Part shown: one piece after another, positions 24,378-40,560 of the stretch | Layout: every line of letters begins with the position of its first letter | Position numbering within the stretch: position 1 is the stretch's first letter | Source of the DNA: Variovorax boronicumulans | GTDB lineage: Bacteria; Pseudomonadota; Gammaproteobacteria; Burkholderiales; Burkholderiaceae_C | Direction: 5' to 3' | NCBI RefSeq assembly: GCF_030812215.1 | Contig: NZ_JAUSSG010000003.1 | Coordinates: forward strand, 124,001 to 188,000 | Length of the DNA: 64,000 bases | The notes under the pieces: model-generated | What the model was told of the DNA's origin: nothing | Databases searched by the model: none | The model's input: only the letters and a program-made list of their open reading frames with translations | Translations under genes and position numbers: made by a program

Positions 24378-24775
24378 GGCATGTTCTTCATGTCGTGGAC
24401 CGACATCGGCATCATGTTGGTGTTCATGTGGTACATGACCCAGAGCGAACCGGCCAGCGTGATGACGACCAGCACGATCGTGAAGATCAGCGCCAGCATG
24501 TTCCAGCCGCTCTCGGACTTGGCGTCCATGTGCAGGAAATAGATCATGTGCACCACGATCTGCACCGCGGCGAAGCCCAGGATGATGAGCGAGGTGGTGT
24601 TCGCGTTAGGAATCACCTTGCCCATGACGAGCCAGAACGGAATCGCCGTCAGGATCACGGCCAGCACGAAGCCGGTCATGTAGCCCTTGAAGGTGCTGTG
24701 GCTCACGGGGCCATCGTCGTGATGGTCGTCGTGCGCGTCATGACCGTGCGCGGCGGTGTCGATGTGGGCGCTCAT
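24374..24775 (-). CDS. cyoD: Cytochrome bo3 ubiquinol oxidase subunit IV
   Basis: 133 residues: a histidine/aspartate-rich N-terminus, then three membrane helices (TGFVLAVILTAIPFWLVM, IILGFAAVQIVVHMIYFLHMD, LALIFTIVLVVITLAGSLWVMYHM). This is the small CyoD subunit that stabilises the oxidase core. The start overlaps the stop of a 52-residue mini-ORF that fills the gap after cyoC, and the stop overlaps SURF1. Confidence 0.93.
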   Translation of the reverse strand: MSAHIDTAAHGHDAHDDHHDDGPVSHSTFKGYMTGFVLAVILTAIPFWLVMGKVIPNANTTSLIILGFAAVQIVVHMIYFLHMDAKSESGWNMLALIFTIVLVVITLAGSLWVMYHMNTNMMPMSVHDMKNMP

Positions 24776-24930
24776 TGAACAACCTTGCTGTGTGATACGT
24801 CGGCAATGCTCTTGTCGAGGAACACCGTGGAACCGGCTTTGCCGGGCCACTGGTGTTGCCCCCGGTAGGGGGAAGGAGAAGCGACACGAAGTGCGCGGAG
24901 CCTGGGGGCGAGCCTTATTGCCGCGCTCAT
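24772..24930 (-). CDS. 52-residue bridging mini-ORF between cyoC and cyoD
   Basis: The ATG overlaps the cyoC stop (ATGA) and the TGA overlaps the cyoD start (ATGA), so a ribosome could pass from cyoC to cyoD without leaving the message. The peptide begins [16 protein letters not shown] and is basic, with no recognisable domain; much of it is encoded by an intergenic repeat. It may be a coupling device rather than a functional protein. Confidence 0.5.
24841..24907 (+). repeat. Operon-gap repeat, copy A (antisense to the genes)
   Basis: On the plus strand it starts GCCGGGCC, has a central hairpin GCCCCCGGTAGGGGGA, and ends ACACGAAGTGCGCGGAG then CCTGGGGG. The words GCCGGGCC, the C-run/G-run hairpin and ACACGAAGTGC recur in copy C at 33.75 kb. 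It lies wholly inside the cyoC/cyoD gap. Confidence 0.7.
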
Positions 24931-25592
24931 GCCATCGATCCCATCAGGTAGACAAAGGTGAAGACGCCGATCCACACGACGTCCAGGAAGTGCCAGAACA
25001 TCGACAGGCACATCAGGCGGCGGCGGTTCGCGGCGGTAAAGCCGTGCTTGGGCAGCTGGATCATCAGCACGATGAGCCAGATGATGCCGAAGCTCACGTG
25101 CAGGCCGTGGGTGCCCACCAGTGCGAAGAACGACGACAGGAACGCGCTGCGCTGCGGGCCCGCGCCTTCGTGCAGGAGGTGCGCGAATTCGTAGAGTTCG
25201 AGGCCGATGAAGCCCGCACCCAGCAGGCCCGTGATGGCCAGCCACACGAGCACGCCGCCCATGCGCTTCTTCTGCATCTCGAGCATCGCGAAGCCGTAGG
25301 TGATCGACGACAGCAGCAGCAGCGAGGTGTTGATCGCCACCAGCGGCAGGTCGAACAGGTCGGCGCCCGAAGGGCCGGCCGCGTAGTTGCGACCCAGCAC
25401 GCCGTACACCGCGAACAGGCACGCGAAGATGAGGCAGTCGCTCATCAGGTAGAGCCAGAAGCCCAGCAGCGTGCCGTTCTCGGGGTGGTGGTCGTTGCCG
25501 ACGTGGAACAGCTCGAACACGGGCGGCTTGCCGGTGTGGTCGCTATGGGCATGCACGCCCGCGGGCGTTTGGAGAGCAGTGGTATCAGACAT
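24927..25592 (-). CDS. cyoC: Cytochrome bo3 ubiquinol oxidase subunit III
   Basis: 221 residues with five membrane helices ([23 protein letters not shown] first, then [59 protein letters not shown] and the C-terminal one). This matches the haem-copper oxidase subunit III family, quinol-oxidase type. It overlaps the end of cyoB by 8 bp. The stop overlaps a mini-ORF leading into cyoD. Confidence 0.95.
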
Positions 25593-27591
25593 GGGCGGCT
25601 CCCAGGAGGCGCGTGCGTTCGCCTTCGGTGCGAACGACGTCTTCCGCGGGGATGTAGTAGTCGCGCTTGTAGTTGAAGGTATGGATGATCACGGCGGCCA
25701 GCATGACGACGAAGCCGATGCCCGCCACGAGCCACATCTGCCAGATCAGCGCGAAGCCGCACGCCGCTGCCAGGGCCGCGATGATGAAGCCGGCGCTGGT
25801 GTTCTTGGGCATGTGGATCGGCGTGAAGCCTTCCAGCGGACGCGCGTAGCCGCGGCGCTTCATGTCGGTCCAGGCATCGTTGTCATGGATGCGCGGCGTG
25901 AACGCGAAGTTGTAGGCCGGCGGCGGCGAGGAGGTCGACCACTCGAGCGTGCGGCCGTTCCACGGGTCGCCGGTGGTGTCGCGCAGCGACTCGCGGCGGA
26001 TGTAGCTCACCACCAGCTGGATGATGAACGAGGCGATGCCCAGCGCGATCAGCACGGCGCCGAAGGCGGCGATCTGGAACCAGATCTGCAGCGACATGTC
26101 CTGGAAGTGGCTCATGCGGCGGGTGACGCCCATCAGGCCCAGGATGTACAGCGGCATGAACGCGAACCAGAAGCCCACGATCCAGAACCAGAACGAGCAC
26201 TTGCCCCAGAACGGATCGAGCTTGTAGCCGAAGGCCTTGGGGAACCAGTAGGTGATGCCCGCCAGCATGCCGAACAGCACGCCGCCGATGATCACGTTGT
26301 GGAAGTGGGCGATCAGGAACAGGCTGTTGTGCAGCACGAAGTCGGCCGGGGGAACGGCCAGCAGCACGCCGGTCATGCCGCCGATCACGAAGGTGATCAT
26401 GAAGCCGATGGTCCACATCATGGGCAGCTCGTAGCGGATGCGGCCGCGGTACATGGTGAAGAGCCAGTTGAAGATCTTCGCGCCCGTCGGGATCGAGATG
26501 ATCATCGTCGTGATGCCGAAGAACGAATTCACGCTGGCGCCCGAGCCCATGGTGAAGAAGTGGTGCAGCCACACGAGGTACGACAGGATCGTGATCACGA
26601 CCGTGGCGTACACCATCGAGGCGTAGCCGAAGAGGCGCTTGCCCGAGAAGGTGGAGACCACTTCCGAGAAGATGCCGAAGGCCGGCAGGATCAGGATGTA
26701 CACCTCGGGGTGGCCCCAGATCCAGATCAGGTTCACGTACATCATGGCGTTGCCGCCCAGGTCGTTCGTGAAGAAGTTGGTGCCGACGTAGCGGTCGAGC
26801 GACAGCAGGGCCAGCACGGCGGTCAGCACCGGGAAGGCGGCGACGATCAGCACGTTGGTGCAGAGGGCGGTCCAGGTGAAGACGGGCATCTTCATCATCG
26901 TCATGCCGGGCGCGCGCATCTTCACGATGGTGGCCAGCAGGTTGACGCCGGAGAGCAAGGTACCTACCCCCGCTATCTGCAACGACCATATGTAGTAGTC
27001 GACCCCCACGTCGGGACTGAAGAGAATGCCCGACAGCGGCGGATACGCGAGCCAGCCGGTCTTGGCGAACTCGCCGACGAACAGCGACGCCATCACGAGG
27101 CCGGCGCCGAAGGTGGTCATCCAGAAGCTGAAGTTGTTCAGGAACGGGAAGGCCACGTCGCGTGCGCCGATCTGCAGCGGCACCACGAAGTTCATGAGGC
27201 CCGTGACCAGCGGCATCGCCACGAAGAAGATCATGATCACGCCGTGGGCGGTGAAGATCTGGTCGTAGTGGTGGGGCGGCAGGAAGCCCGCGTTGTCGCC
27301 GAAGGCGAAGGCCTGCTGGGCCCGCATCATGATCGCGTCGGCAAAGCCGCGCAGCAGCATCACCAGCCCGAGGATGATGTACATGATGCCGATCTTCTTG
27401 TGGTCGATGCTGGTGATCCAGTCTCGCCACAGCACGCCCCACACCTTGAAGTAGGTGATGGCGCCCAGGAGGGCAATGCCGCCCAGCACCACGGCCGCGA
27501 AGGTCGCGAGCAGGATGGGCTCGTGATAGGGAATCGCCTCCCATGTGAGGCGGCCGAAGACGAGCTTCGTCAGGTCAAGGTTCTGCAACAT
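25585..27591 (-). CDS. cyoB: Cytochrome bo3 ubiquinol oxidase subunit I
   Basis: 668-residue catalytic subunit that reduces O2 at a haem-copper centre and pumps protons. The key pieces are visible: [17 protein letters not shown] with a haem ligand, [17 protein letters not shown] with the CuB histidine and cross-linked tyrosine, the histidine pair in [12 protein letters not shown], and [13 protein letters not shown] with further haem ligands. The start at 27591 is one base past the cyoA stop. Confidence 0.96.
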
Positions 27592-27592
27592 C

Positions 27593-28621
27593 TTATTCTT
27601 CGGTAGTGCACATCGCGGTGACGTACTTGCGCGTGGGCGAATCGACGAGGGAGTCGGTCTGCCAGGCTTGCTTGGTGGCGACATTGAAGGCGCCGGGCTT
27701 GCCCAGTCCACCGTTGGCATCGATGGCCATCATTTCCTTCATGCACATCTTGTTGCGGTCGACGCAGAGATTCAGGATGGCGTCGTACAGGGTGGCGTCG
27801 ACGGAGGCGTAGTGGCGCACGGGTTCGCGCTCGCTCGGCACTTCGAGCTTCAGGTACTTCTCGCGGGTCAGCTCGCCTTCCTTGCCGGCCTTGACCTTGG
27901 CAACCCACTGGTCGAAGTCGCCGTTGCTCAGGCCATGGAACTTGAAGCGCATGCCCGAGAAGCCCGCGCCGCTGTAGTTGGCCGAGAAGCCTTCGAATTC
28001 GCCTGGCTTGTTGATCACGGCGTGCAGCTTGGTCTGCATGCCCGGCATGGCGTAGATCTGGCCGGCCAGCGCGGGGATGAAGAAAGAGTTCATCACCGAG
28101 GAGGCGGTGATCTTGAAGCTGATCGGCACATCCACCGGCGCGGCAAGTTCGTTCACCGTGGCGATGCCCTGTTCGGGGTAGATGAAGAGCCACTTCCAGT
28201 CGAGCGCGACCACTTCGACCACCAGCGGCTTGGTCTCGGGCGAGATCTGGCGCTTGGCATCGAGGCGGCTCAGGGGCCGGTAGGGGTCGAGCGTGTGGGT
28301 GCTGATCCAGGTGATCGCGCCGAGCGCGATGATGATCAGCAGCGGCGCCGCCCAGATCGCGAGTTCGAGCTGGGTGGAGTGGTCCCAGTCGGGGCTGTAG
28401 GTGGCCTCCTTGTTCGACTGGCGGTAACGCCAGGCGAAGAAGATGGTCAGCGCGATCACCGGGATGATGATGATCAGCATCAGCACCGTGGACACGACGA
28501 TGAGTCGGCCCTGCTGGTTGGCGATGTCGCCGGAGGGGTTCATGAGCACCGTGTTGCAGCCCGCCAGCAAGGCGAGGGGAAGCAAGACGAGCCATCGGCG
28601 AAGGGAGTGGAGGGTGGGCAT
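27593..28621 (-). CDS. cyoA: Cytochrome bo3 ubiquinol oxidase subunit II
   Basis: 342-residue lipoprotein subunit. The signal peptide ends in LLAGC, two helices follow, then the cupredoxin-like domain with [29 protein letters not shown] and [19 protein letters not shown]. The Cu-A ligand set of cytochrome c oxidases is absent, as expected for a quinol oxidase. The start at 28621 is chosen for the signal peptide. It is the first gene of a unit reading cyoA-cyoB-cyoC-cyoD-SURF1-regB-regA. No cyoE (haem O synthase) is present in the window. Confidence 0.95.
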
Positions 28622-28682
28622 GCCGAAGAGAAAGAAAGAGGTGCGTGGGCTGCGCAAAGACTCCACAATCTACGACCAAAGG

Positions 28683-28721
28683 TTCCCGCCGCCTATTGGA
28701 CGTTTTGTCCTATGGCGGGAA
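28683..28721. promoter_or_regulatory. Hairpin in the cyoA/MFS divergent gap
   Basis: TTCCCGCC at 28683-28690 and GGCGGGAA at 28714-28721 are exact inverted repeats, with an inner GGAC/GTCC pair. It sits midway in the 182-bp gap between divergent cyoA and the MFS gene, so it may be a regulator site for either. No T-run follows. Confidence 0.4.
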
Positions 28722-28803
28722 TCCCCGTTCGGTGAGACGCTTGGAGCCTCTGTTCAATGGTCTACCTTTGTCACTGCCGGTGACACCCGAATTACAAAAC
28801 GCA

Positions 28804-30156
28804 ATGACGACGACGTCCAGCATCAGTCCGCAAGGCGCACAGCCTGTGCCGAACACGTCCGGAAACGGCGCCAGCCTGAGCCAGAGCGGCGACGCCGATC
28901 ACTCGCACATCGCCCCGGGCGAGATCGCGGTGGGCGTGATCATCGGCCGCGCTTCCGAGTATTTCGACTTCTTCGTCTACGGCATCGCCTCGGTGCTGGT
29001 GTTCCCGTACATCTTCTTTCCGTTCGAGCAGCGCCTGGAGGGAGTCCTTTACGCGTTCGTGGTCTTCTCGTTCGCGTTCATTGCCCGGCCGTTCGGAACT
29101 GTCATCTCGATGGCGATCCAGCGACGATTCGGGCGCGAAACCAAGCTGACGATCGCGCTGTTCCTTTTGGGCACGTCCACGGCCGGCATCGCTTTCCTGC
29201 CGGGCTACGAGAGCATCGGCTTCACCGCGATCGTTCTGCTGTCGGTGTTCCGTTTCTGCCAGGGCCTGGCGCTCGGCGGTTCGTGGGACGGCCTGCCCTC
29301 GCTGCTCGCCCTCAATGCCCCGCCGAACCGCCGCGGCTGGTACGCCATGCTGGGCCAGCTGGGCGCGCCCATCGGCTTCTTCATTGCCAGCGCGCTGTTC
29401 GCGTACCTCTACGCAAGCCTCTCGATCAAGGAATTCCTCGACTGGGGCTGGCGCTACACCTTCTACGTGGCCTTCGCGATCAACGTGGTGGCGCTCTTCG
29501 CGCGCCTGCGCCTGGTGGCCACCGAAGAGTATTCGCGCCTGCTCGAAGAGCGCGAACTGCAGCCGACCAGCGTGGTCGAGCTGACCCGCTCGCAGGGCGC
29601 CAACCTCTTGATCGGCGCGTTCGCCGCACTGGCCAGCTATGCGCTGTTCCACCTGATCACCGTGTTCCCGCTCTCGTGGATCACGCTGTACTCCGACCAG
29701 TCGATCACCGAATTCCTGATCGTTCAGATGATCGGCGCGGTGTTCTGCGCCGGTGGCATCGTGGCCTCGGGCCTGATCGCTGACCGCGTGGGACGCCGTT
29801 TCACTTTGGGTGGCCTCGCCGCGATGATCGCTGTGTTCAGCGGTTTTGCGCCCACGCTGCTGGACGGCGGCCGCATCGGGCAGGACGTCTTCATCCTGCT
29901 GGGCTTCGTGCTGCTGGGCCTCTCGTACGGCCAGGCTGCAGGTGCCGTGACCTCGAACTTCGAACCCAAGTACCGCTACACCGGCGCGGCGCTCACGGCC
30001 GACCTGGCCTGGCTGATCGGCGCCGCGTTCGCACCGCTGGTCGCGCTGGGGCTGTCGGCGAACTTCGGGTTGGCCTACGTGAGCGTCTACCTGCTCTCGG
30101 GTGCGGCCGGCACGCTGGCGGCGCTGGGGTTGAACCGGGCGCTGGTGCGCGACTGA
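28804..30156 (+). CDS. MFS transporter, metabolite:H+ symporter type
   Basis: 450-residue membrane protein with about 12 helices, matching the MHS branch of the major facilitator superfamily (organic acids, osmolytes). It begins its core with IIGRASEYFDFFVYGIASVLVFPYIFFP; loop motifs include FIARPFGTVISMAIQRRFGRETKL and LADRVGRR-like text at residue 330. An N-terminal hydrophilic extension of about 40 residues is Ser/Gly rich. The start at 28804 is the first ATG after the promoter region. A clear terminator follows. Confidence 0.85.
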   Translation: MTTTSSISPQGAQPVPNTSGNGASLSQSGDADHSHIAPGEIAVGVIIGRASEYFDFFVYGIASVLVFPYIFFPFEQRLEGVLYAFVVFSFAFIARPFGTVISMAIQRRFGRETKLTIALFLLGTSTAGIAFLPGYESIGFTAIVLLSVFRFCQGLALGGSWDGLPSLLALNAPPNRRGWYAMLGQLGAPIGFFIASALFAYLYASLSIKEFLDWGWRYTFYVAFAINVVALFARLRLVATEEYSRLLEERELQPTSVVELTRSQGANLLIGAFAALASYALFHLITVFPLSWITLYSDQSITEFLIVQMIGAVFCAGGIVASGLIADRVGRRFTLGGLAAMIAVFSGFAPTLLDGGRIGQDVFILLGFVLLGLSYGQAAGAVTSNFEPKYRYTGAALTADLAWLIGAAFAPLVALGLSANFGLAYVSVYLLSGAAGTLAALGLNRALVRD

Positions 30157-30185
30157 ACGAACGGCGCACTGCCGACGTTCTCGAC

Positions 30186-30214
30186 AAGGGGCCTCCGGGC
30201 CCCTTTTTCTTTTC
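30186..30214 (+). terminator. Rho-independent terminator after the MFS gene
   Basis: AAGGGGCC, a 4-nt loop, then GGCCCCTT, followed directly by TTTCTTTT. It ends the MFS transcript before the HAD phosphatase gene. Confidence 0.85.
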
Positions 30215-30247
30215 CGATGCCGCGGCGCACTGACTTAGGATTCACCC

Positions 30248-30928
30248 ATGTTCTCCGCCGCCATCTTCGACATGGACGGGCTCCTCATCGACTCGGAGCG
30301 GCCCATCATGGCCGCCTGGATCGAAGCGGCCCGCACGCTCGACATCGAGCTTTCGCACACGCAGTACCTGCAGGTCGTGGGCCTTGCCACCTCGGAGTCC
30401 GAGGTGATCCTGGGCACGCTGCTCGGCGGGCCCGATGCCTACCGCCACGCGATCGCGCATGTGCGCAAGCGCCTGCAGCTGGAGCGCTCCGACGGCACGC
30501 CGCTCTTTCCCATCAAGCCCGGAGCGGCCGAGTTCCTCGCCGCATTGCGCCAGCGCGGCACGCGTTGCGCGGTGGCTTCGTCGTCCACCAGCGGACAGAT
30601 CCAGGCCTGCCTCGGCAGTCTCGATGTGCTCCATCACTTCGATGCCTTCGCGGGCGGCGACGAGGTCGCGCGCGCCAAGCCCGATCCGGCGCTCTACCTG
30701 CTCGCGGCCTCGCGCCTGGGTGTGGACCCTGCCGAGTGCATCGCCTTCGAGGACAGCGAGAACGGCGCCAAGGCCGCGCTGGCGGCGGGCTTGCGCGTCG
30801 TGATCGTTCCGGACCTCAAGCACCCGCCTGCATCGATCGTCGAGCGGGCGTTCCATGTGCTCGATTCGCTGCACGATGCGACGGCGCATTTGCCGCGCTG
30901 GTTTCCCGGCGAGATGGTGCGGCCATGA
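30248..30928 (+). CDS. HAD-superfamily phosphatase, beta-phosphoglucomutase-like
   Basis: 226 residues. Motif I is FDMDGLLIDSE with the nucleophile Asp and acid/base Asp; motif II is VASSSTSGQIQ; motif III Lys is in DEVARAKPDPALYLLAA; motif IV acids are in CIAFEDSENGAKAALAAGLRVV. A helical cap sits between motifs I and II (residues 15-85). Such enzymes act on small phosphorylated metabolites; the substrate is not deducible. The stop overlaps the start of the next gene. Confidence 0.88.
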   Translation: MFSAAIFDMDGLLIDSERPIMAAWIEAARTLDIELSHTQYLQVVGLATSESEVILGTLLGGPDAYRHAIAHVRKRLQLERSDGTPLFPIKPGAAEFLAALRQRGTRCAVASSSTSGQIQACLGSLDVLHHFDAFAGGDEVARAKPDPALYLLAASRLGVDPAECIAFEDSENGAKAALAAGLRVVIVPDLKHPPASIVERAFHVLDSLHDATAHLPRWFPGEMVRP

Positions 30929-31251
30929 CCCTCAAGATCGGCACTCTGTGCCACGTCGTCGACAGCTGCCTCGCCTCGCCGATGACCGAGCGCGCGGTCG
31001 GTCGCATCGTGGAGGTGGTCTCCGCGCCCTATGAAGCGCCCAGCGAGCGCTACCTGCCCGGCACCTACTACGACGTGCTGTTCGAGGGCTGGACCTTCTA
31101 TTGCCGCAGCGACAAGCTCGTGCCCATCTCCGATCCCGGTGCGGACGTCGGCAGCTGGGAAGACGAATTCATCGACCTCCCCGCCGGCTCGCCTCAGAGC
31201 ACTTCGTCGCGCAGCTGCGGGAACACCTTCGACACCTTCGCGAGCAGGTAG
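30925..31251 (+). CDS. Conserved-looking hypothetical protein
   Basis: 108-residue protein starting at an ATG that overlaps the HAD stop. It reads like a small beta-rich domain: [30 protein letters not shown], then [25 protein letters not shown]. No family is recognised. The last 19 codons overlap, tail to tail, the 3' end of the oxygenase gene on the other strand, and the low-complexity end there may be read-through rather than a conserved part. Confidence 0.6.
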
Positions 31252-32207
31252 TCGCCATAGCGGCCGCTGAAGGCGTGCACGTTGGCGCGGTCCCAGCGCT
31301 CTGCGCTGTCGTCGAGGGCTTCCGCACCCGCAAGCCCTTCGATGCGCTGCACGCGCGCCTCGAAATTCGGATCGAAGAACAACGGAAACGACAGCCGGTC
31401 GCGCCCCGAGGTGTTGCGCTTCACGCGGTGCGGCGTCGACTTGTAGAGCCCGCCGGTCATGCGGTCGAGCATGTCGCCGATGTTGCAGACGAAAGAGCCG
31501 GCAATCGGCGGCGCATCGATCCAGCCGCCCGGCGTGTGTACCGCGAGGCCGCCCACGGTGTCCTGGTGAAGGATGGTGAGAAGGCCATAGTCGGTGTGTT
31601 CGCCGACGCCCCATTGCACATCGAGCCCTTCGGGCACGGGCTGCGAGGGGTAGTTGAAGAGGCGGAACAGGATCAGCGGATCGGCCGTGTAGCGCTCGGC
31701 GAAGTACGCGGCGGGCAGGCCGAGACTCAGCGCAATGCCTTCCATCAGCCGATGACCGAGCTGCGTCACCGCGGCCATGTAGTCGAGGATGGTTTCGCGA
31801 AAGCCCGGCACGTCGGGAAAGAGGTTCGGCCCGTGCACCGGCGTCTTCGCCAGCACCCGCGGATGCGTCGCGGGCAGTTCGGTGCCGAGGTAGAGGCCTT
31901 CCTTCCAGTCGGGCCGGCCCGAGGTCAGCTCGCCGCCGAGCGGGAAGAAGCCGCGCCACGCGCGCCCGCCGAGGGCCATGCGCCACTGCATCTTGGTTTC
32001 TTCGGGCAACTCGAAGAACTGGTGGCTCAGGTCTTCGAGGCGCTGCACCAGCGCCGCATCGACGCCGTGGCCTGTGACGTAGAAGAAGCCGTGCGCGCGA
32101 CAGGCGGCGCCGATCTGCGCGGCCACGTCGCTGCGTTCGGGCGCGCCGGCCACGAGCGGCGCGACGTCGATCACGGGCAGCGAAAGAAGTGGGTCGATAG
32201 TGGTCAT
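31194..32207 (-). CDS. Isopenicillin N synthase-family 2-oxoglutarate/Fe(II) oxygenase
   Basis: 337 residues. The N-terminal domain has [12 protein letters not shown] and [12 protein letters not shown]; the double-stranded beta-helix has the iron ligands His and Asp in [16 protein letters not shown], the distal His in STPHRVKRN, and the oxoglutarate-binding Arg-x-Ser in [13 protein letters not shown]. It oxidises a small, unknown substrate. It lies 17 bp after the ATPase gene of an amino-acid ABC importer and is probably co-transcribed, which hints at an amino-acid-like substrate. Confidence 0.88.
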
Positions 32208-32223
32208 GGTCGAAGAGAGCATG

Positions 32224-32963
<740 letters not shown>

Positions 32964-32967
<4 letters not shown>

Positions 32968-32996
32968 GCGGACACCTTGGGGGCCGTTGTGAGCAT
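32964..32996 (-). CDS. 10-codon bridging mini-ORF between permease and ATPase
   Basis: It encodes [10 protein letters not shown]. Its ATG shares a base with the permease stop (TAATG) and its TGA overlaps the ATPase ATG (ATGA). A GGAGGT ribosome-binding sequence supplied by repeat copy B lies about 7 bases upstream of the ATG. It would couple translation of permease and ATPase. Confidence 0.45.
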
Positions 32997-33739
32997 TAAG
33001 TAACCTCCGCGCTTCGCGCTGCGGTGCGAGCTTGCTTGGGGCGGCCCGGCGCGGCGCTCATGCCGCGGCGCGCAAGCCGCCGCTCCAGCCAGTAGGCGAA
33101 GCGCGAGAGGCCGAAGCAAAGAATGAAGTACGTGCCGCCCAGGATCAGGTAGATCTGCGCCGGCTTGGTGAACACCTGCGTGTTGATCTGCGTCGCGATG
33201 AACGACACCTCCGCCAGGCCGATGATGTAGCCGAGCGAGGTCTCCTTGATGGTCGAGACGAACTGGTTCACCAGCGAGGGCAGCATGCTGCGCAGTGCCT
33301 GCGGCAGCACCACGAGGCGCATCGCGCGGAAGTAGCTCAGGCCGAGCGCACGCGCCGTTTCCATCTGCCCGCGCGGCAAGCCCTGGATGCCGGCGCGCAC
33401 GATCTCGGCGAGGTAGGCGGCATCGAAGATCACCAGCGCGATCAGCATGGTGGTGAACTGGTCGGTCTTCACGCCCGTCACGCTGGGCAGGAAGAAGTAG
33501 GCCCAGAAAATCACCATCAGCAAAGGCAGGCCGCGCACCACGAACACGAAGCCCGTCACCGGCCAGCGCAGCCACCGCCAGGGGCTCACGCGCGCGAGGC
33601 CGAGCACGATGCCCAGAGGCAGCGCGAGCACCAGCCCGCACGAGGCCAGCAGCAGCGTGAGCACCAGCCCGCCGAGCGGGCCGTTGGGGTACTGCCCGAT
33701 GAGGAAGTAGACCCAGTAGTCGTTGATGATCTGCAGCAT
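32996..33739 (-). CDS. Polar amino-acid ABC transporter permease (second)
   Basis: 247-residue HisM/GltK-type permease: helices [90 protein letters not shown] (EAA loop) and a final TM. The last 20 or so residues ([20 protein letters not shown]) are basic, unlike the family, and are encoded by an intergenic repeat, so the native C-terminus probably ended near RRLARRG. Start at 33739 overlaps a mini-ORF stop (TGATG); TTG at 33745 is an alternative. Confidence 0.9.
33003..33059 (-). repeat. Operon-gap repeat, copy B (forms the permease tail)
   Basis: Read on the minus strand it has GCCGGGCCGCCCCAAG and ends GCAGCGCGAAGCGCGGAGGT; the latter 20 bases (33003-33022) are identical to 40531-40550 in copy D. 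It encodes the C-terminus of the permease and places GGAGGT just before the next start. Confidence 0.8.
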
Positions 33740-33837
33740 CAGCAATGGCCCCCACGCTCGGCACTTCGTGTCCTCGCTGCCCCCCGAGGGGGCCGCTCGC
33801 GCCTTGGGGCGGCCCGGCGCCGCTCGAACGCGTTCAT
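33739..33837 (-). CDS. 32-residue bridging mini-ORF between the two permease genes
   Basis: The ATG overlaps the stop of the upstream permease (ATGA) and the TGA overlaps the ATG of the downstream permease (TGATG). The peptide begins MNAFERRRAAPRRERPPRG and ends TRSAERGGHC; it is strongly basic and repeat-encoded. The RRAAP and RSAE words recur in the slpA/ispH mini-ORF. Confidence 0.5.
   Translation of the reverse strand: MNAFERRRAAPRRERPPRGAARTRSAERGGHC
33748..33823 (-). repeat. Operon-gap repeat, copy C
   Basis: On the minus strand: GGCGCCGGGCCGCCCCAAGG, then a hairpin GGCCCCCTCGGGGGGC, then ACACGAAGTGC and GAGCGTGGGGG. It shares its first part with copies B and D and its second part with copy A, tying the four together. 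The terminal GTGGGGG can serve as ribosome-binding site for the permease starting at 33739. Confidence 0.8.
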
Positions 33838-34529
33838 ATGGTCCGCACCGGGAAGCGGTGGTGATACCAGGTCGCCAGGCCGGTGATGGCCAGCGACACC
33901 GTGAGATACGCCGCGCTCGCGAACGCGAACGACTCGAAGCTGCGGAAGGTCGCGCTCTCGACCTGGCCGGCCTGGTACATGAGCTCGGCCACGCCGATCA
34001 CGGTGGCGATCGAGGTGTTCTTCCAGAGGCTCAGCGTCTGCGAGATGAGCGGCGGCACCGTGACCCGCAGCGCCTGCGGCAGCACGACGCGGCGCATGGT
34101 GTCGAGAAAGCTGAAGCCCAGCGCGCGCCCGGCTTCGAACTGCACGGCCGGGATCGCGCGGATGCCGCTGCGGATGTCCTCCGCCATGAAGGCGGCCGTG
34201 TACAGCGCGAGCGCGACGATGGCGCTGTAGGCCTCGATGTGCCCCGCGTAGAGCCATTGCTTGATGCCGTCGGGCAGCAGTTCGGGGGCACCGAAATACC
34301 AGAAGAGCATGTGCGCGAGCAGCGGGATGTTGCGGATCGACTCCACGTACGCGAAGCCCAGCCAACGCAGCGGCGCGACCGGCGAGAGGCGCAGCAGCGC
34401 CACCACCAGCGCGATGGGCAGTGCGAGCACGAGCGAGGCCGCCAGCAGCTGCAGCGAGAGCAGGAGGCCCGCGACCAGCATGTCGTGGTACTTGCCGGTC
34501 AGCAGCAACGAGTAGTCGAACAGGGGCAT
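33834..34529 (-). CDS. Polar amino-acid ABC transporter permease (first)
   Basis: 231-residue HisM/GltJ-type permease with helices MLVAGLLLSLQLLAASLVLALPIALVVALL, YVESIRNIPLLAHMLFWYFGAPELL, an EAA loop [41 protein letters not shown] and a C-terminal helix. Paired with the second permease as a heterodimer. It is separated from the binding-protein gene by a terminator, and its stop overlaps a mini-ORF. Confidence 0.92.
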   Translation of the reverse strand: MPLFDYSLLLTGKYHDMLVAGLLLSLQLLAASLVLALPIALVVALLRLSPVAPLRWLGFAYVESIRNIPLLAHMLFWYFGAPELLPDGIKQWLYAGHIEAYSAIVALALYTAAFMAEDIRSGIRAIPAVQFEAGRALGFSFLDTMRRVVLPQALRVTVPPLISQTLSLWKNTSIATVIGVAELMYQAGQVESATFRSFESFAFASAAYLTVSLAITGLATWYHHRFPVRTI

Positions 34530-34605
34530 GGGAAATCAGGGAGCGCGGCGAAAGACGCTGGAAGGCGCCGGGGCGCACATGGTACGCATGCGCGCCGTGC
34601 CGCTC

Positions 34606-34645
34606 AAAAAACGAAGGGCGGGTCGCTCGGCGGCCCGCCCTTCGT
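34606..34645 (-). terminator. Terminator between the binding-protein and permease genes
   Basis: ACGAAGGGCGGG at 34611-34622 pairs exactly with CCCGCCCTTCGT at 34634-34645; on the minus strand the stem is followed by six T residues. It should stop part of the transcripts after the binding-protein gene, giving more binding protein than membrane components. Confidence 0.88.
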
Positions 34646-34662
34646 GCGACTGGCGACGAGGC

Positions 34663-35490
34663 TCAGTCGATCTTGTCCGACTCGAGCTTGAAGTCGCGCG
34701 TCTGGAAGCCCGATGCGGTGTCCGGGCCGTACCACTTCACGAAGATCTTCTGCGCTTCGCCCGACTTTTCCAGCTCGCGCAGCGTGTCGTCCACCACGGC
34801 CTTCAGTCCGCTCTCGCCCTTCTTGATGCCGATGGCCAGCGCCTCGGTGCTCAGGTTCTGCTTGAGCACGACGTACTGCGCCTTGGCCGGACCGAGCTTG
34901 GCGTAGCTGCGCAGCAGCGCGGCCTCGTCGTCCACGTAGCCCACGCCCTTGCCTTGCTGCAGCGCCTGGAAGGCTTGCTGGCTCGTGTCGAAGGTCACGA
35001 CCTCGGCGGTGGGCACGGCCTTGCGGATGTTGGGCTCCTGCGTGCCGCCGCGAATGGTCAGCACCTTCTTGCCGCCCAGCTGGGGCACGTCGGTGATGCC
35101 GCTGTCCTTCTTGACGATGGCCTTCTGGCCGGTCACGAAAGTGGTGAGCGAGAAGTCGATCTGCGCTTCGCGCTCCTTGTTGTGCGTGAGGCCCGCGGCC
35201 ACCAGGTCCACGTGGCCCTGCTGCAGCTCGGGAATGCGCGCGGCCACGGCGATTTGCTTGAGCACCGGCTTCACGCCGATCTTCTTGGCGATGGCGTTCA
35301 CCAGGTCGACTTCGTAGCCGACGATCTGGCGCGTCTTGGGATCGACGAAGGTTGCGGGCTCGTCGGTGCCGAGCACGCCGACCACGAGTTCGCCTTTTTT
35401 CTTGATGTCGGCGAGCTGGTCTGCATGGGCGACGGTGCCCAGCAGGAAGGTGGAGGCGGCGAGGGCCGCGGCGAGCAAAGTGTGGCGCAT
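34663..35490 (-). CDS. Polar amino-acid ABC transporter substrate-binding protein
   Basis: 275 residues with a signal peptide ([23 protein letters not shown]). The family-3 solute-binding pattern is clear: [40 protein letters not shown], then [21 protein letters not shown], then [10 protein letters not shown]. It resembles glutamate/aspartate-type proteins (GltI), but ligand choice is not certain. It heads the operon and is divergent from fabV. Confidence 0.9.
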
Positions 35491-35566
35491 GGTTGTTCTC
35501 TCTCCGGTTGGAAATTCAGGGCCGAACCATATCAATAAAACCGCAGATTATTAAATCGTCAATCGA

Positions 35567-35578
35567 CATATGCATATG
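35567..35578. promoter_or_regulatory. Perfect 12-bp palindrome in the divergent gap before fabV
   Basis: CATATGCATATG is fully self-complementary and lies 76 bp from the binding-protein start and 76 bp from the fabV start, in an AT-rich stretch. It is a plausible operator, with no known factor assigned. Confidence 0.3.
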
Positions 35579-35654
35579 GCGTGTATGGGATGCCTTCGCA
35601 ACCGGCTGGGTTAAATTCGCGGGCTTCCCCGGCATCACATCCAGCGAGGTCTTC

Positions 35655-36854
35655 ATGATCATCAAACCGCGCGTGCGCGGCTTCATCTGCGTCACGACCC
35701 ACCCCACGGGCTGCGAAGCCAACGTCAGGCAGCAGATCGACTACGTGCTGGCCCAGGGCCGGATTGCCGGGGGACCGAAGAAGGTGCTCGTCATCGGCGC
35801 ATCGACCGGCTACGGCCTGGCCGCGCGCATCACCGCGGCCTTCGGCAGCGGCGCCGACACGCTGGGTGTGTTCTTCGAGCGGCCCGGCAGCGAGACCAAG
35901 CCCGGCTCGCCCGGCTGGTACAACACCGCGGCTTTCCACCGTGCGGCGGCCGAAGAAGGCCTCTACGCGAAGAGCATCAACGGCGACGGCTTCTCCGACG
36001 ACGTGAAGCAGAAGACCATCGATGCGATCCGCGCGGACCTCGGCCAGGTCGACCTCGTCGTCTACAGCCTGGCCGCGCCGCGGCGCATGCATCCGAAGAC
36101 CGGCCAGGTCTTCAACTCGACGCTCAAGCCCATCGGCAAGGCCGTGACCCTGCGCGGCCTGGACACCGACAACGAGGTCGTCAAGGACACCGTGCTGGAG
36201 CCCGCCACGCAGGAAGAAATCGACAACACCGTCGCCGTGATGGGCGGCGAGGACTGGCAGATGTGGATCGATGCGCTGCAAGACGCCGGCGTGCTGGCCG
36301 AGGGCGCGAAGACGACCGCCTTCACATATCTGGGCGAGCAGATCACGCACGACATCTACTGGAACGGCTCCATCGGCGCCGCCAAGAAAGACCTCGACCA
36401 GAAGGTGCTCGGCATTCGCGCCGGCTTGGCCGCGAAGGGCGGCGATGCGCGCGTGTCGGTGCTGAAGGCGGTCGTGACACAGGCGAGCTCGGCCATTCCG
36501 ATGATGCCGCTGTACCTGTCGCTGCTGTTCAAGGTGATGAAGGAGAAGGGCACGCACGAGGGCTGCATCGAGCAGGTGCACGGCCTCTTTGCCGAGAGCC
36601 TCTACGGCCCCACGCCGCATCTGGACAGTGAAGGGCGCCTGCGTGCGGACTACAAGGAGCTGGCTCCCGATGTGCAGGCGCGCGTGGTCGAGCTCTGGCC
36701 CCAGGTCACCAGCGAGAACATCCACGAGCTCACCGACTTTGCGGGCTACAAGGCCGAGTTCCTGCGCCTCTTCGGCTTCGCGGTCGAAGGCGTGGACTAC
36801 GAGGCCGACGTGAACCCCGATGTGGGCATTCCGAACCTCGTGCAGGTCCAGTAG
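35655..36854 (+). CDS. fabV: Enoyl-[ACP]/trans-2-enoyl-CoA reductase FabV
   Basis: 399 residues. FabV reduces the trans-2 double bond in the last step of fatty acid elongation using NADH and is naturally resistant to triclosan. The start [20 protein letters not shown] is typical; the NAD loop is [16 protein letters not shown]; the active-site pair is Y-x8-K in [10 protein letters not shown]. The C-terminal [12 protein letters not shown] and [14 protein letters not shown] fit the family. The start at 35655 matches family length; the frame runs further upstream without a good site. Confidence 0.95.
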
Positions 36855-36878
36855 AAGCACAGAGGGATACTCCCGCCC

Positions 36879-37298
36879 ATGCAGATTCAAGAAAAACCGC
36901 CTGCCGGCACGCCCTTCGAGTGGATCGGCGGCGAGCCGAAGGTAGAGGCGCTGGTCGAGCGCTTCTACGACCTGATGGACCTCGAGCCCGCCTACGCGCA
37001 ACTGCGTGCCGTGCACGGCACCAGCCTGGACAACGCGCGCCAGCGCCTCTTCTGGTTCCTGTGCGGCTGGCTCGGCGGCCCGCAGCACTACACCGACCGC
37101 TTCGGCCATCCGATGCTGCGCGCGCGTCATCTGCCGCAGAGCATCGGCGGCCACACCATCGGCATCAAGGAGCGCGACCAGTGGCTCGCCTGCATGGACC
37201 AGGCGATGGGCGAGACCGGCGTGCCGGACGACTTGCGCGCGCGTTTGCGCACCTCGTTCTTCCAGACCGCCGACTGGATGCGCAACCGCGGCGAATAA
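36879..37298 (+). CDS. Group II truncated haemoglobin
   Basis: 139 residues, a 2-on-2 globin. It opens PFEWIGGEPKVEALVERFYDLMDLEPAY, has the FWFLCGWLGGPQHYTDRFGHPMLRARH block with the proximal haem histidine in RARHLP, and the Trp-containing KERDQWLACMDQAM helix typical of group II. It binds O2 or NO. It lies 24 bp after fabV and 32 bp before a flavin-dependent reductase that may reduce it. Confidence 0.93.
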   Translation: MQIQEKPPAGTPFEWIGGEPKVEALVERFYDLMDLEPAYAQLRAVHGTSLDNARQRLFWFLCGWLGGPQHYTDRFGHPMLRARHLPQSIGGHTIGIKERDQWLACMDQAMGETGVPDDLRARLRTSFFQTADWMRNRGE

Positions 37299-37330
37299 GA
37301 ACAGACACCGATTCCGAAAGACTCTCCCTC

Positions 37331-38554
37331 ATGAATTCCATCGTCATCATCGGCGGCGGCCACGCCGCGGCCCAGCTTTGCGCCGGCCTTGCCGAAGCCG
37401 GGCAGGGCGCACGCGTGCACCTGGTCTGCGAGGAGGCCTGCGAGCCGTACCACCGGCCGCCGCTGTCGAAAGCCTTCCTCAAGAGCGCCGAAGAAACCAC
37501 GCAGCCGCACAAGGCCGCCGACTGGTACCGCGAAGCGGGCATCACGCTGCACCTGGGCGATGCGGCCGTGGCCATCGACCGCGAGGCGCACACCGTCACG
37601 CTGCGCTCGGGCGCGGTGCTGCCGTGGGAGCGCCTGGTGCTCGCCACCGGCACGCGCGCACGCCAGATGCCCGACCTGAAGCCAGGGCTCGAAAACGTCG
37701 CGAGCCTGCGCGCCGCCGACGAGGCGCATCGCCTGCGCGAACGGCTTGCCGGGGCGCAGCATGTCACCGTGCTCGGCGGTGGCTTCATCGGCCTCGAAGT
37801 GGCGGCCACCGTCAAGGCGCTCGGCAAGAGCGTGCAGGTGATCGAGAGTGCGCCGCGCCTGCTGGGCCGCGCCGTGTCGCCCGAGCTGTCGGCGCACGTG
37901 CTCGCGACGCATCGCGCGGCGGGCATCGACATCGTGCTCGGCGCGCAGACCGGCGCGTTCGAGGTCGAGGGTGATCGGCTCGTGTCGATCCTGGTCAACG
38001 GCGTGAAGCAGCCGGTGGACCTGCTGCTGCTGGGCATCGGCGCCGTGCCCGAGACCGCACTGGCGCAGGCCGCGGGTATCGAGTGCGCCGACGGCATCGT
38101 GGTCGATGGCCACATGCAGACCAGCGCCGCCGACGTGCTCGCCGTGGGCGACTGCACGCGCTTCCCCGACCGCCGCGCGGGCCGCACGATGCGGCTCGAA
38201 TCGGTGCAGAACGCCAACGACCAGGCACGTACCGCGGTCGCCACGCTCACCGGCGCCGCGCGTCCGCACGATGTCGTCGCATGGTTCTGGTCCGACCAGG
38301 GCAGCATGCGCCTGCAGATGGTGGGCCTGATGCCCGCCGAAGGCACGCCGGGTCTGACGAGCGTGCGCCGCCCCGGCCCGAAGCCGGAGGCGTTCTCGCT
38401 GTTCCACTATGTCGATGGGCAGCTGGTGTGCGTCGAGTCGGTCAACGCACCGGTCGATCACATGATGAGCCGCAAGCTGCTCGAAGCGGGGCGCAACCCC
38501 GATCCCGCAGCGATTGCGGATGCGGCGATTCCGCTCAAGAACCACCTGGCGTAA
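37331..38554 (+). CDS. FAD-dependent ferredoxin reductase-like oxidoreductase
   Basis: 407 residues. FAD motif VIIGGGHAAAQLCAGL at the N-terminus, active region YHRPPLSKAFL, NADH motif VTVLGGGFIGLEVAATVKALGKSV, second FAD motif DVLAVGDCTRFP, and a C-terminal dimerisation domain. This is the reductase class that feeds ferredoxins of dioxygenases and P450s. No ferredoxin gene is nearby, so the truncated haemoglobin just upstream is a candidate electron acceptor. Confidence 0.9.
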   Translation: MNSIVIIGGGHAAAQLCAGLAEAGQGARVHLVCEEACEPYHRPPLSKAFLKSAEETTQPHKAADWYREAGITLHLGDAAVAIDREAHTVTLRSGAVLPWERLVLATGTRARQMPDLKPGLENVASLRAADEAHRLRERLAGAQHVTVLGGGFIGLEVAATVKALGKSVQVIESAPRLLGRAVSPELSAHVLATHRAAGIDIVLGAQTGAFEVEGDRLVSILVNGVKQPVDLLLLGIGAVPETALAQAAGIECADGIVVDGHMQTSAADVLAVGDCTRFPDRRAGRTMRLESVQNANDQARTAVATLTGAARPHDVVAWFWSDQGSMRLQMVGLMPAEGTPGLTSVRRPGPKPEAFSLFHYVDGQLVCVESVNAPVDHMMSRKLLEAGRNPDPAAIADAAIPLKNHLA

Positions 38555-38597
38555 CCGCGCCGCGCCGTGATCGCAGTGACGCGCACGCCGGGCGGCT

Positions 38598-39272
38598 TCA
38601 GCGCCGCGCCGGCGCCAGCAGCACCACCAGCGCGCCCGCGCCGCCTTCGGCCGGCTTCGCCTGCACGAACGCGATCACCTCGTTCTTCTGGATCAGCCAG
38701 CGCTGCGTCTTGGTCTTGAGCACCGGCTGCTTGCCGGGCGAGCCGAGGCCCTTGCCGTGCACCACGCGCACGCAGCGCAGTCCCTGCTTGTACGCATTGC
38801 GGATGAAGCCGCCGAGTGCTTCGCGCGCCTCGTCGCTGCGCAGGCCGTGCAGGTCGACCTGCGCCTGGATCGACCAGTCGCCCTTGCGCAGCCGCGCCGT
38901 CACGTCGGTGCCGATGCCGGGGCGGCGAAAGCTCATGGCGTCGTCGACGTCCAGCAGCGTGGTCACGTCGAACTCGTCGGAGAGCGATTCGCGCAGCACG
39001 CGCTGCTCGTCGAGCTGGTGCTGCACCGGAATCGGCGCGGGCGGCTCGGGCGCGAGCGGCACGGCGGCCTTGCGGCGCAGCGGTTCGGTGGCACCGATGG
39101 CGCGGGCGAACAGGTCTTTCTCGGCCGCGCGCTTGCGCTCCGCAGCGGCCTTGGCCGCAGCCTCGGCCGCTTCGCGCTCGCGCGTTTCGGCCAGCGCCCG
39201 CTGCACCTGCTTGAGGTCGGCAAGGTTCTTCAGCGTCTTGGGTGTTTTCAGCGGCGGGGGACGCGAGGCCAT
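38598..39272 (-). CDS. Smr-domain endonuclease-like protein
   Basis: 224 residues: an alanine-rich, strongly charged coiled N-terminus (residues 15-60), then a C-terminal Smr domain with DLHGLRSDEAREAL, VRVVHGKGLGSPGKQPVLK and the closing GGAGALVVLLAP. Smr domains, first found at the end of MutS2, nick DNA or cleave RNA. The ATG shares a base with the radC stop (TGATG), so both are translated together. Confidence 0.9.
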   Translation of the reverse strand: MASRPPPLKTPKTLKNLADLKQVQRALAETREREAAEAAAKAAAERKRAAEKDLFARAIGATEPLRRKAAVPLAPEPPAPIPVQHQLDEQRVLRESLSDEFDVTTLLDVDDAMSFRRPGIGTDVTARLRKGDWSIQAQVDLHGLRSDEAREALGGFIRNAYKQGLRCVRVVHGKGLGSPGKQPVLKTKTQRWLIQKNEVIAFVQAKPAEGGAGALVVLLAPARR

Positions 39273-39949
39273 CAGAGCAATCCTTTTTCGGCCATCGAGA
39301 AGCTCTGGCCCGGGCTCACGATGACGTGGTCGATCACGCGCACATCCACCAGCGAGAGCGCGGCCCTGAGCGTTTGCGTGAGCGATTCGTCGGCGCGCGA
39401 GGGCTCGATGCTGCCGCTCGGGTGGTTGTGCGCCAGCACCGCGGCCGCGGCCTGGTGGTGCAGGGCGCGCATGACGATTTCGCGCGGATAGACGCTGGCC
39501 TGCGTGAGCGTTCCGCGAAACAGCTCCTCCAGCACGATCAGCCGGTGCTGCACATCGAGGAACAGCACCGCGAACACCTCGTGCGGCCGCGAGCCGATGT
39601 GCAGCTGCACATACTGCTTGACCGCCTCGGGCGAGTCGAACACCGTGCGCTCCTTGAGCTGCTCGGCCATGGCGCGGCGCGCCAGTTCGAGCACCGCGAT
39701 GAGTTCGGCGCGCTTGGCATCGCCGCCCATGCCCTTGACGACCTTCAGGTCCTCGGGGCCGGTGTTCAGCAGGCCCGAGAGGCCGCCGAAACGCTCGAGC
39801 AGTTCCTGCGCCATCTGCAGCACGTTCTTGCCCGGCACGCCGGTGCGCAGCAGCAGCGCCAGCAGTTCGGCGTCGGCCAGCGCGGCAACGCCTCGTGCGA
39901 TGAGCTTTTCGCGCGGGCGGGCGTCTGCGGGGAGATCCTTGAAAGCCAT
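39272..39949 (-). CDS. radC: RadC family JAB-domain protein
   Basis: 225 residues. An N-terminal helix-hairpin-helix region ([33 protein letters not shown]) precedes the JAB metalloprotease-like domain with the metal motif [14 protein letters not shown]. Despite its name, a DNA repair role is not supported for RadC in E. coli. It is divergent from slpA. Confidence 0.93.
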
Positions 39950-40057
39950 CGAAACCTTGGGAAACCTTGAATGGAGCGGGTGGAAGGTCCCCGTCCTTAA
40001 AATGCAGTCCAGTTTATCGGGACACCCCCCTTGTCTTTGCCCACCTCCGCTTCCTCC

Positions 40058-40501
40058 ATGTCCCACGTCGTGACTTCCGGCTCCTTCCTGACCCTGCATT
40101 ACCGGCTGGCCGGACCGGCGGGCGACATCATCAACACCTTCGCCGACAAGCCCGCGACCCTGTCGCTCGGCACCGGCGAACTTTCGCCTGCCATGGAGCA
40201 GCGCCTGATGGGCCTCGAAGAGGGCACGCATGCCACCTTCGAGCTGCCTGCCGGCGAGGCTTTCGGCGATCGCAATCCCGAAATGCAGCAATGGGTCGCC
40301 AAGAAGCTGCTCGCGCAGATGGGCGACCCCGACGAGAAGTACGCCGTGGGCGACGTGGTGCAGTTCCCCACGCCCGATGGCACCGGCAGCTATGCCGGCG
40401 CGGTGATCGAATCGAGCGAGACCGCGGTGCGCTTCGACTTCAACCATCCCCTGGCCGGCCAGCCTGTGACCTTCGAGGTCCGGTTGATCGGGGTGCTATG
40501 A
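40058..40501 (+). CDS. slpA: FKBP-type peptidyl-prolyl isomerase SlpA
   Basis: 147 residues of the SlyD/SlpA group: [59 protein letters not shown] (flap domain boundary) and [18 protein letters not shown]. It catalyses proline isomerisation and acts as a chaperone. The ATG at 40058 gives the usual N-terminus; a TTG at 40031 is an alternative. The pairing with ispH (fkpB-ispH) is conserved in many proteobacteria. Confidence 0.92.
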
Positions 40502-40560
40502 GCCGCCGGGCCGCTCCCAAGGCGAATACCGCAGCGCGAAGCGCGGAGGTCTCCGAATGA
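40498..40560 (+). CDS. 20-residue bridging mini-ORF between slpA and ispH
   Basis: The ATG overlaps the slpA stop (ATGA) and the TGA overlaps the ispH ATG (ATGA). The whole peptide, [20 protein letters not shown], is encoded by repeat copy D. Its TAARSAEV part is identical to the C-terminus of the permease ending at 32996. Confidence 0.5.
40503..40552 (+). repeat. Operon-gap repeat, copy D
   Basis: It begins CGCCGGGCCGCTCCCAAGGC and ends GCAGCGCGAAGCGCGGAGGT at 40531-40550, identical over those 20 bases to copy B. It fills the slpA/ispH gap exactly and its GGAGGT is the ribosome-binding sequence for ispH, 7 bases before its ATG. Confidence 0.85.

What the first reader, a model, noticed from the sequence alone, without database searches (positions are those of the whole stretch)
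24772..40560. A repeat family occupies operon gaps and each copy is read through in an open frame overlapping both neighbouring genes
Four copies of one repeat family (24841-24907, 33003-33059, 33748-33823, 40503-40552) share words: CGCCGGGCCGC, CCCAAGG, a C-run/G-run hairpin, ACACGAAGTGC, and a 20-base identical end in B and D. All four sit inside operons. At 24772-24930, 33739-33837 and 40498-40560 the gap is exactly one mini-ORF (52, 32 and 20 codons) whose ATG overlaps the upstream stop and whose stop overlaps the downstream start. In the fourth the repeat is the permease tail, followed by a 10-codon mini-ORF with the same overlaps. Peptides share RRAAP and AARSAEV. In three copies the repeat also supplies the downstream GGAGGT/GGGGG ribosome-binding site. 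Chance is unlikely for four of four. I infer a mobile or amplified element that survives in operons only when it keeps translational coupling.
Basis: partly seen in the sequence, partly recalled or inferred. Interest (0 to 1): 0.85.

Follow-up and report, generated by a model that had tools for sequence, protein, structure and literature searches.

The report
MIRU-like coupling minigenes in Variovorax operons
In Variovorax and related bacteria a small mobile repeat sits in the four letters where one gene's stop overlaps the next gene's start, and it carries its own tiny reading frame and usually a ribosome-binding site, so that ribosomes could still pass from one gene to the next; a similar kind of element is described from mycobacteria.

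Summary
Three gaps are exactly one mini-ORF; in the fourth copy the repeat is fused to a permease. Copies B and D belong to a large family: 38 type I copies in this genome, matches in 95 of 101 genus genomes and 51 of 150 family genomes. The ~65-bp unit ATGAGCGCC...GGAGGT... encodes [22 protein letters not shown]; its ATG overlaps the upstream stop and its stop overlaps the downstream start. Relatives show empty sites: a bare ATGA overlap where others carry the unit exactly there. Of 233 copies not followed by another copy, 198 are linked to the downstream gene (162 at both ends) and 15 fused to it in frame. At two junctions, 30 genomes each, 32 of 33 spacers, several of unrelated sequence, are linked mini-ORFs. 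Best reading: a mobile minigene inserted at start codons and kept where translational coupling survives, as reported for mycobacterial MIRUs (review PMC12548453), here in Comamonadaceae and with a covarying hairpin. The moving enzyme is unknown. Type III relatives are mostly unlinked, so 'only' is too strong, and copy B landed at an ATG where relatives have no ATGA.

The parts
24772..24930 (-). mini-ORF A (52 codons) between a COX3 gene (24927-25556) and a COX4_pro gene (24374-24775), cyoC/cyoD-type; ATGA at both ends; ~155-bp insert
   Evidence: of 30 genus genomes 27 have the bare ATGA overlap and 3 (own included) carry the insert
24841..24907 (+). repeat core inside A (opposite to the direction of translation)
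32996..33061 (-). type Ia copy B: repeat [24 protein letters not shown], fused to the permease as its last 21 residues; stop TAA overlaps the next ATG (TAATG)
   Evidence: Pfam domain of the permease ends at residue 223 of 247
32964..32996 (-). 10-codon [13 protein letters not shown], the displaced original permease C-terminus; ATGA on the ATPase start
   Evidence: all 29 relatives examined have such a tail in frame in the permease; 12 of 29 have ATGT at the insertion point, none ATGA
33003..33019 (-). GCGC-GAA-GCGC hairpin and GGAGGT Shine-Dalgarno of copy B
   Evidence: hairpin covariation in the family
33739..33837 (-). mini-ORF C (32 codons) between two ABC permease genes; long hairpin type with GGGGG before the start
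   Evidence: 7 of 30 genomes (own included) carry this repeat, 4 exactly linked, 3 ending inside the downstream gene
40498..40560 (+). type Id copy D, mini-[23 protein letters not shown] between an FKBP-type isomerase (40058-40501) and ispH/LytB (40557-41525); ATGA at both ends
   Evidence: empty sites and a double copy in relatives
40534..40550 (+). GCGC-GAA-GCGC hairpin and GGAGGT Shine-Dalgarno of copy D
   Evidence: hairpin covariation in type Ia

Best explanation
Type I/Id repeats are short non-autonomous mobile elements that insert at start codons, nearly always at a DTGA where a stop and a start overlap, and behave as ready-made coupling minigenes. Shown: the unit (65 bp for Ia, about 59 for D, 77 and 86 for other forms) carries an ATG that overlaps the upstream stop, a 20-30 codon open frame, a hairpin and a Shine-Dalgarno (strong in Ia, weaker in the 26- to 30-codon forms), and its stop overlaps the downstream start. 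In a 4-bp overlap it makes two overlaps out of one, and tandem copies make more. Inferred: a ribosome ending the upstream gene re-initiates on the minigene, ends 22 codons on and re-initiates on the downstream gene; without the minigene a 61-nt gap would break coupling. Copies or spacers that lose the register are purged. What is selected is mainly the register, with hairpin and Shine-Dalgarno, rather than a particular peptide. Unknown: the enzyme that moves it, the exact target rule, and why overlaps are so enriched.
For: Empty/filled sites: glycerol-ABC junction, 30 genomes: 9 bare ATGA, 20 linked spacer, 1 unlinked; slpA-ispH junction, 30 genomes: 18 direct (3 of these with extra sequence fused to ispH), 12 linked; cyoC-cyoD, 30 genomes: 27 bare, 3 linked. 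Census: 233 copies not followed by another: 198 linked downstream (189 NTGA, 9 TGATG; 162 also overlap the upstream stop), 15 fused to the downstream gene, 20 neither (13 of them without a called downstream gene); 13 different minigene lengths, one of them (100 codons, L038) doubtful. Upstream stop overlaps the ATG as NTGA in 173 of 204 copies with a called upstream gene, versus 7 of 40 same-strand pairs in the window. Beyond DTGA the flanks of 151 copies agree no better than shuffled. Tandem: 26 copies, spacing 65 in 13, 17 of 26 linked to the next. No in-frame stop in 140 distinct Ia copies, 6.6 +/- 2.5 expected. Hairpin: each of four pairs 98.6-100% paired, 26 double changes, all 26 paired; triloop GNA in 133 of 140. 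Shine-Dalgarno match mean 5.3 nt for 22-codon copies versus 3.1 for 51 window genes. Gaps of about 20 nt nearly abolish coupling in E. coli and H. volcanii (PMC10666635, abstract).
Against: No expression data. In one search one control frame is also low (1, the other 6, versus 6.6-6.8 expected). Many copies are orthologous or share a master, so counts overstate independence; named-collection copies were fetched by an exact 32-mer, so their 5' half could not vary. 9 of 26 tandem neighbours are not exactly linked. The 26-codon and 29-codon forms have Shine-Dalgarno matches of only 4.0 and 3.3, near the window mean. Copy B went into an ATG where 12 of 29 relatives have ATGT and none ATGA, so ATGA is not a strict target. 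No transposase was tied to the repeat. In the window DTGA occurs at 396 non-gene places and 7 overlaps (the first is inflated by missed genes), yet 27 of 38 own copies sit at overlaps, which DTGA targeting plus purging of gene disruptions does not explain.
Confidence: 0.77

Rival explanations
1. Chance: in GC-rich DNA stop codons are rare, so any short gap looks like an open frame that touches both neighbours.
For: All three forward frames of the Ia consensus are stop-free.
Against: The register is not chance: 32 of 33 spacers at two junctions are linked, with several unrelated sequences and lengths; of 220 last copies with a called downstream gene, 199 have the linking frame, 17 the fused frame, 4 the third. 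Type III copies in same-strand gaps are linked in 1 of 12.
Confidence: 0.04
2. Ordinary REP/REPIN elements mobilised by the single RAYT-like Y1 transposase; the coupling is incidental.
For: Hairpins with GNA loops; a Y1_Tnp match in 96 of 100 genus genomes, one in most; type III copies lie mostly in longer gaps.
Against: No GTAG or CGTC word in the Ia consensus; next to the RAYT gene in 20 genomes only weak 3-4 mismatch hits, most at one place inside the downstream gene; position is tied to stop-start overlaps.
Confidence: 0.12
3. A host-owned expression module: copies are kept because they raise or tune translation of the downstream gene, and spread by recombination rather than transposition.
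For: Strong Shine-Dalgarno in type Ia, conserved hairpin beside it, enrichment at overlaps far above the share of DTGA sites, several repeat types at the same junction.
Against: Patchy presence among relatives and insertion inside the permease gene (B) look like mobility; no flank homology beyond 4 nt; longer forms lack a strong Shine-Dalgarno.
Confidence: 0.25
4. The minigenes encode functional small proteins ([20 protein letters not shown]...).
For: Synonymous share of changed codons 0.40 versus 0.285 +/- 0.025 expected.
Against: Peptides of the different types and of unrelated spacers differ while the linkage is kept; hairpin and Shine-Dalgarno constraints can bias the codon count.
Confidence: 0.05

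Closest known systems
MIRU, mycobacterial interspersed repetitive units (Supply et al. 1997, not held; review PMC12548453, passage read)
   [quoted passage not shown] Recalled, not from a call: DTGA target sites in coupled operons.
   Different: Here in Comamonadaceae; a covarying GNA-loop hairpin before a Shine-Dalgarno (MIRUs recalled as lacking dyad symmetry); modular 3' halves. No sequence comparison with a MIRU was made.
Rickettsia palindromic elements and enterobacterial RU elements (PMC10969869, PMC2759123, passages read)
   Same: Small mobile repeats with open frames, sometimes fused in frame to genes, as in copy B and in L028, L043.
   Different: Reported inside genes or between genes; nothing in the passages read ties them to stop-start overlaps.
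REP/REPIN elements with RAYT (PMC2817692 one passage; PMC3733652, PMC8266576, PMC3116915 search listing only)
   Same: Short hairpin repeats in many copies; a RAYT-like gene is present in the genus.
   Different: No GTAG/CGTC word in the consensus, no clear copies beside the RAYT gene, position at overlaps, encoded minigene.
Regulatory mini-ORF of axe-txe (PMC8708949, abstract and outline read)
   Same: A tiny frame acts in cis on translation of the next gene, depending on frame and distance.
   Different: Two codons, one locus, not a mobile repeat.

Membership tests
MIRU (mycobacterial interspersed repetitive unit) | inserted at start codons with a -4 overlap to the downstream gene | tested here: met
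   189 of 233 last copies NTGA-linked downstream; empty sites
MIRU (mycobacterial interspersed repetitive unit) | carries a small ORF that overlaps both neighbouring ORFs | tested here: met
   both ends in 162 of 233; own type I 25 of 38 both ends, 31 of 38 downstream
MIRU (mycobacterial interspersed repetitive unit) | interspersed, also tandem copies of the unit | tested here: met
   26 copies followed by another, 13 at 65 bp; four in a row in one genome
MIRU (mycobacterial interspersed repetitive unit) | no obvious dyad symmetry (recalled) | tested here: not met
   covarying 4-bp stem with GNA loop
MIRU (mycobacterial interspersed repetitive unit) | occurs in mycobacteria (PMC4213456 passage, gives M. 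leprae and the tuberculosis complex) | tested here: not met
MIRU (mycobacterial interspersed repetitive unit) | sequence homology to MIRU | not tested
   no MIRU sequence was fetched
REP/REPIN | GTAG or CGTC tag at one end of the palindrome (title of PMC3733652, listing) | tested here: not met
   neither word is in the Ia consensus (sequence itself)
REP/REPIN | copies flank the RAYT gene (recalled) | tested here: not met
   20 genomes, only weak 3-4 mismatch hits, most at one place inside the downstream gene
REP/REPIN | mobilised by a RAYT/Y1 transposase | not testable with these tools
   needs binding and cleavage assays
G/C-rich intrastrand triplex motif (PMC4666352, abstract and passages) | runs able to form an intrastrand triplex | not tested
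   C-run/G-run/G-run seen by eye in types II, III and copy C; not in type Ia

The most novel reading that the evidence does not exclude
Insertion or retention is guided to translated stop-start overlaps themselves: a mobile DNA whose fate depends on translational coupling and which serves as a portable tuner of protein ratios in operons. The same junctions have been entered by several unrelated spacers, nearly all of which are linked minigenes, so stop-start overlaps would be a general niche for mobile DNA in bacteria.
Probability: 0.25. Interest if true: 0.82.

Novelty: new variant of a known kind. Interest (0 to 1): 0.64.

Why it matters
If right, the minigene strategy described for MIRUs is not a mycobacterial oddity. 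The genus supplies empty and filled orthologous junctions, several repeat types and unrelated spacers that keep the linking register, so gap length and register become testable predictions about translational coupling. It also matters for annotation: in the two plasmid records looked at no gene is listed over the minigene (that gene table is incomplete), and some copies are fused in frame to real genes.

Tried and rejected
A single-family reading of the four window copies was dropped after the genome census: several subfamilies share the core. The RAYT-like Y1 transposase as neighbour of the repeat was tested and not supported. A shared flank longer than 4 nt was tested and rejected. A strict ATGA target was tested at B and not supported. 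My 'open frames per copy' count counted the terminal stop and is not used. An Rfam scan at gathering threshold found only a tRNA. Literature: 10 searches; six sequence words of the repeat occur in no held paper, and one search combining MIRU-like with translational coupling and related terms found none; the library is open-access only and lacks Supply 1997. No match in phages, 4 records in plasmids.

Rows dropped before counts: 15 of 274 copies near a locus end. 13 of 233 last copies had no called downstream gene and are among the 20 'neither'. 'Own' includes four weak matches (7-8 mismatches: L015, L066, L077, L088) removed. 'Linked' means the downstream end only; both ends are counted. L082 was lost from the type III count by a duplicate key. 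Own copies found by BLAST are a lower bound (40 of 106 candidates scored).
Full report
Check of the observation. The three gaps are, base for base, single mini-ORFs: A 24772-24930(-), C 33739-33837(-), D 40498-40560(+), with ATGA overlaps (TGATG at the downstream end of C). A codon-usage gene caller that knows nothing of the repeat gives the same gene ends. The genes are a cytochrome oxidase pair (COX3/COX4_pro), an amino-acid type ABC operon and an FKBP isomerase-ispH pair.

Family. The window is G000:C3:124001-188000 of a 6.75-Mb genome. Its genus is Variovorax by inference: a contig of genus member G089 has the same length, 1,426,901, as the named record of Variovorax sp. OK212. The core CGCCGGGCCGCNCCAAG has 51 exact and 149 near matches, 71 for the reversed control. 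Reading the copies shows a modular family. Type I begins ATGAGCGCCGCGCCGGGCCGCCCCAAGCAAGC and continues in one of several 3' halves: Ia (22 codons...GTGCGAAGCACGGAGGT...), Ib (26), Ic (29-30). Type Id (window D) is a shorter relative. Types II/III have a palindrome around the core, a C-run/G-run hairpin and CACGAAGTG...GGGGG; five near-identical type IIa copies also read as minigenes on the other strand, by eye. Insert A (~155 bp) is another repeat: its inner part matches elsewhere in other genomes, and similar inserts sit at the C junction in three other genomes.

Position and register. In this genome 38 type I copies: 31 linked downstream (25 at both ends), 2 fused to the downstream gene, 5 neither (L016 = window B, L029, L055, L094, L101; for L055, L094 and L101 no downstream gene was called). 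Over all held loci 259 copies lie away from locus ends: 26 are followed by another copy, 13 of them at 65 bp; of the other 233, 198 are linked downstream (162 at both ends), 15 fused, 20 neither. Where a downstream gene was called (220) its frame is the linking one in 199, the fused one in 17, the third in 4. Type III copies in same-strand gaps are linked in 1 of 12. Copies are related and partly orthologous, so these are not independent trials.

Empty sites. Each set is 30 genus genomes, this one included. Glycerol-ABC junction: 9 have only the ATGA overlap, 20 carry a linked spacer, 1 an unlinked one. Spacers there include Ia, Ic, Id, another G/C-rich repeat (L145, L168) and a spacer whose orthologues differ by whole codons (20-23). 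slpA-ispH: 12 linked spacers (single Id, a double Id read as one 39-codon frame, reverse type II, four kinds of short spacer), 18 direct, 3 of these with extra sequence fused to ispH. cyoC-cyoD: 27 bare, 3 with insert A. C junction: 18 have a 12-16 nt gap with no overlapping start, 9 are linked, 3 carry the repeat but run past the start by a few bases; so here the bare state is not an overlap. B: all 29 relatives have an uninterrupted permease whose stop overlaps the ATPase start. In this genome the unit sits within the permease, 10 codons before its end, and both resulting frames still chain to the ATPase. At that point 12 of 29 relatives have ATGT and none ATGA.

Target. The flanks of 151 linked copies share DTGA and nothing beyond what composition predicts. 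B shows that an ATG without the following A can be used, unless the lost ancestral site had it. In the window DTGA occurs at 7 overlaps, at 396 non-gene places (inflated by missed genes) and 827 times in genes, yet 27 of 38 own copies have the NTGA overlap with the upstream stop. Purging of gene disruptions alone does not give this: overlaps are preferred, or copies elsewhere are lost or decay, or copies at overlaps are favoured. This is unexplained.

Sequence constraint. In 140 distinct Ia copies there is no in-frame stop (6.6 +/- 2.5 expected from reshuffled changes; control frames 6 and 1 with 6.8 and 6.6 expected), and changes lean to third positions (101/88/156). The hairpin before the Shine-Dalgarno covaries: 26 double changes, all still paired; the triloop is GNA in 133 of 140. 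GNA loops are recalled as unusually stable DNA hairpins; this fits a strand recognised during mobility as well as an mRNA hairpin. Shine-Dalgarno match before the downstream start: 5.3 bases for 22-codon copies, 4.0 for 26, 3.3 for 29, against 3.1 for window genes; before the minigene's own ATG 4.3.

Distribution. Matches in 95 of 101 genus genomes (E 1e-4) and 51 of 150 family genomes, 47 of 141 genera (E 1e-8); outside the family only weak or partial matches in the order sample of 250. On two plasmids the minigene is a 61-bp stretch without a listed gene between two genes.

Mechanism. Coupling by termination-reinitiation needs overlaps or very short gaps; about 20 nt nearly abolishes it (PMC10666635, abstract). 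A 61-nt insertion would therefore uncouple the pair unless it is itself translated in the linking register. The element is built for that. The insertion step, the enzyme and any benefit are inferred or unknown.

Known or new. The review PMC12548453 (passage) states the same idea for mycobacterial MIRUs. By architecture this is MIRU-like; by host and by its hairpin it is not a typical MIRU, and sequence homology was not tested. I therefore call it a new variant of a known kind. That no description of this repeat was found rests in an open-access library.

Noticed in passing
L145, L168 (glycerol-ABC junction of relatives G024, G004): A different repeat (CCCCATCCCAACCTT...GGGGAAGGAGCC) fills the same stop-start junction and also forms a linked minigene, of 27 and 50 codons.
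   Followed up: partly
L274 (MAG HGW-Betaproteobacteria-3), 379-2730: Several copies of the long form begin CCGAGC instead of ATGAGC, two of them 85 bp apart, and have no minigene start.
   Followed up: no
L071, L074, L083 and other type II/III copies: The loop GCCGGGCCGCCCCAA is flanked by stems whose sequence differs from copy to copy while staying complementary (by eye).
   Followed up: no
G000:C8:329572-329907 (L319 3043-3738): A single RAYT-like Y1_Tnp gene upstream of a glutamate-synthase-like gene (by eye), in similar gene order in most of 20 genomes, without clear copies of this repeat beside it.
   Followed up: yes
window 24700-24775 and L446-L475: The N-terminus of the COX4_pro (cyoD-type) protein is a His/Asp/Gly-rich tract that changes length between relatives in whole codons.
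   Followed up: no
L043 and L360: Type Ia copies 66 rather than 65 bases long, in which the minigene is fused in frame to the downstream gene as an N-terminal extension.
   Followed up: partly
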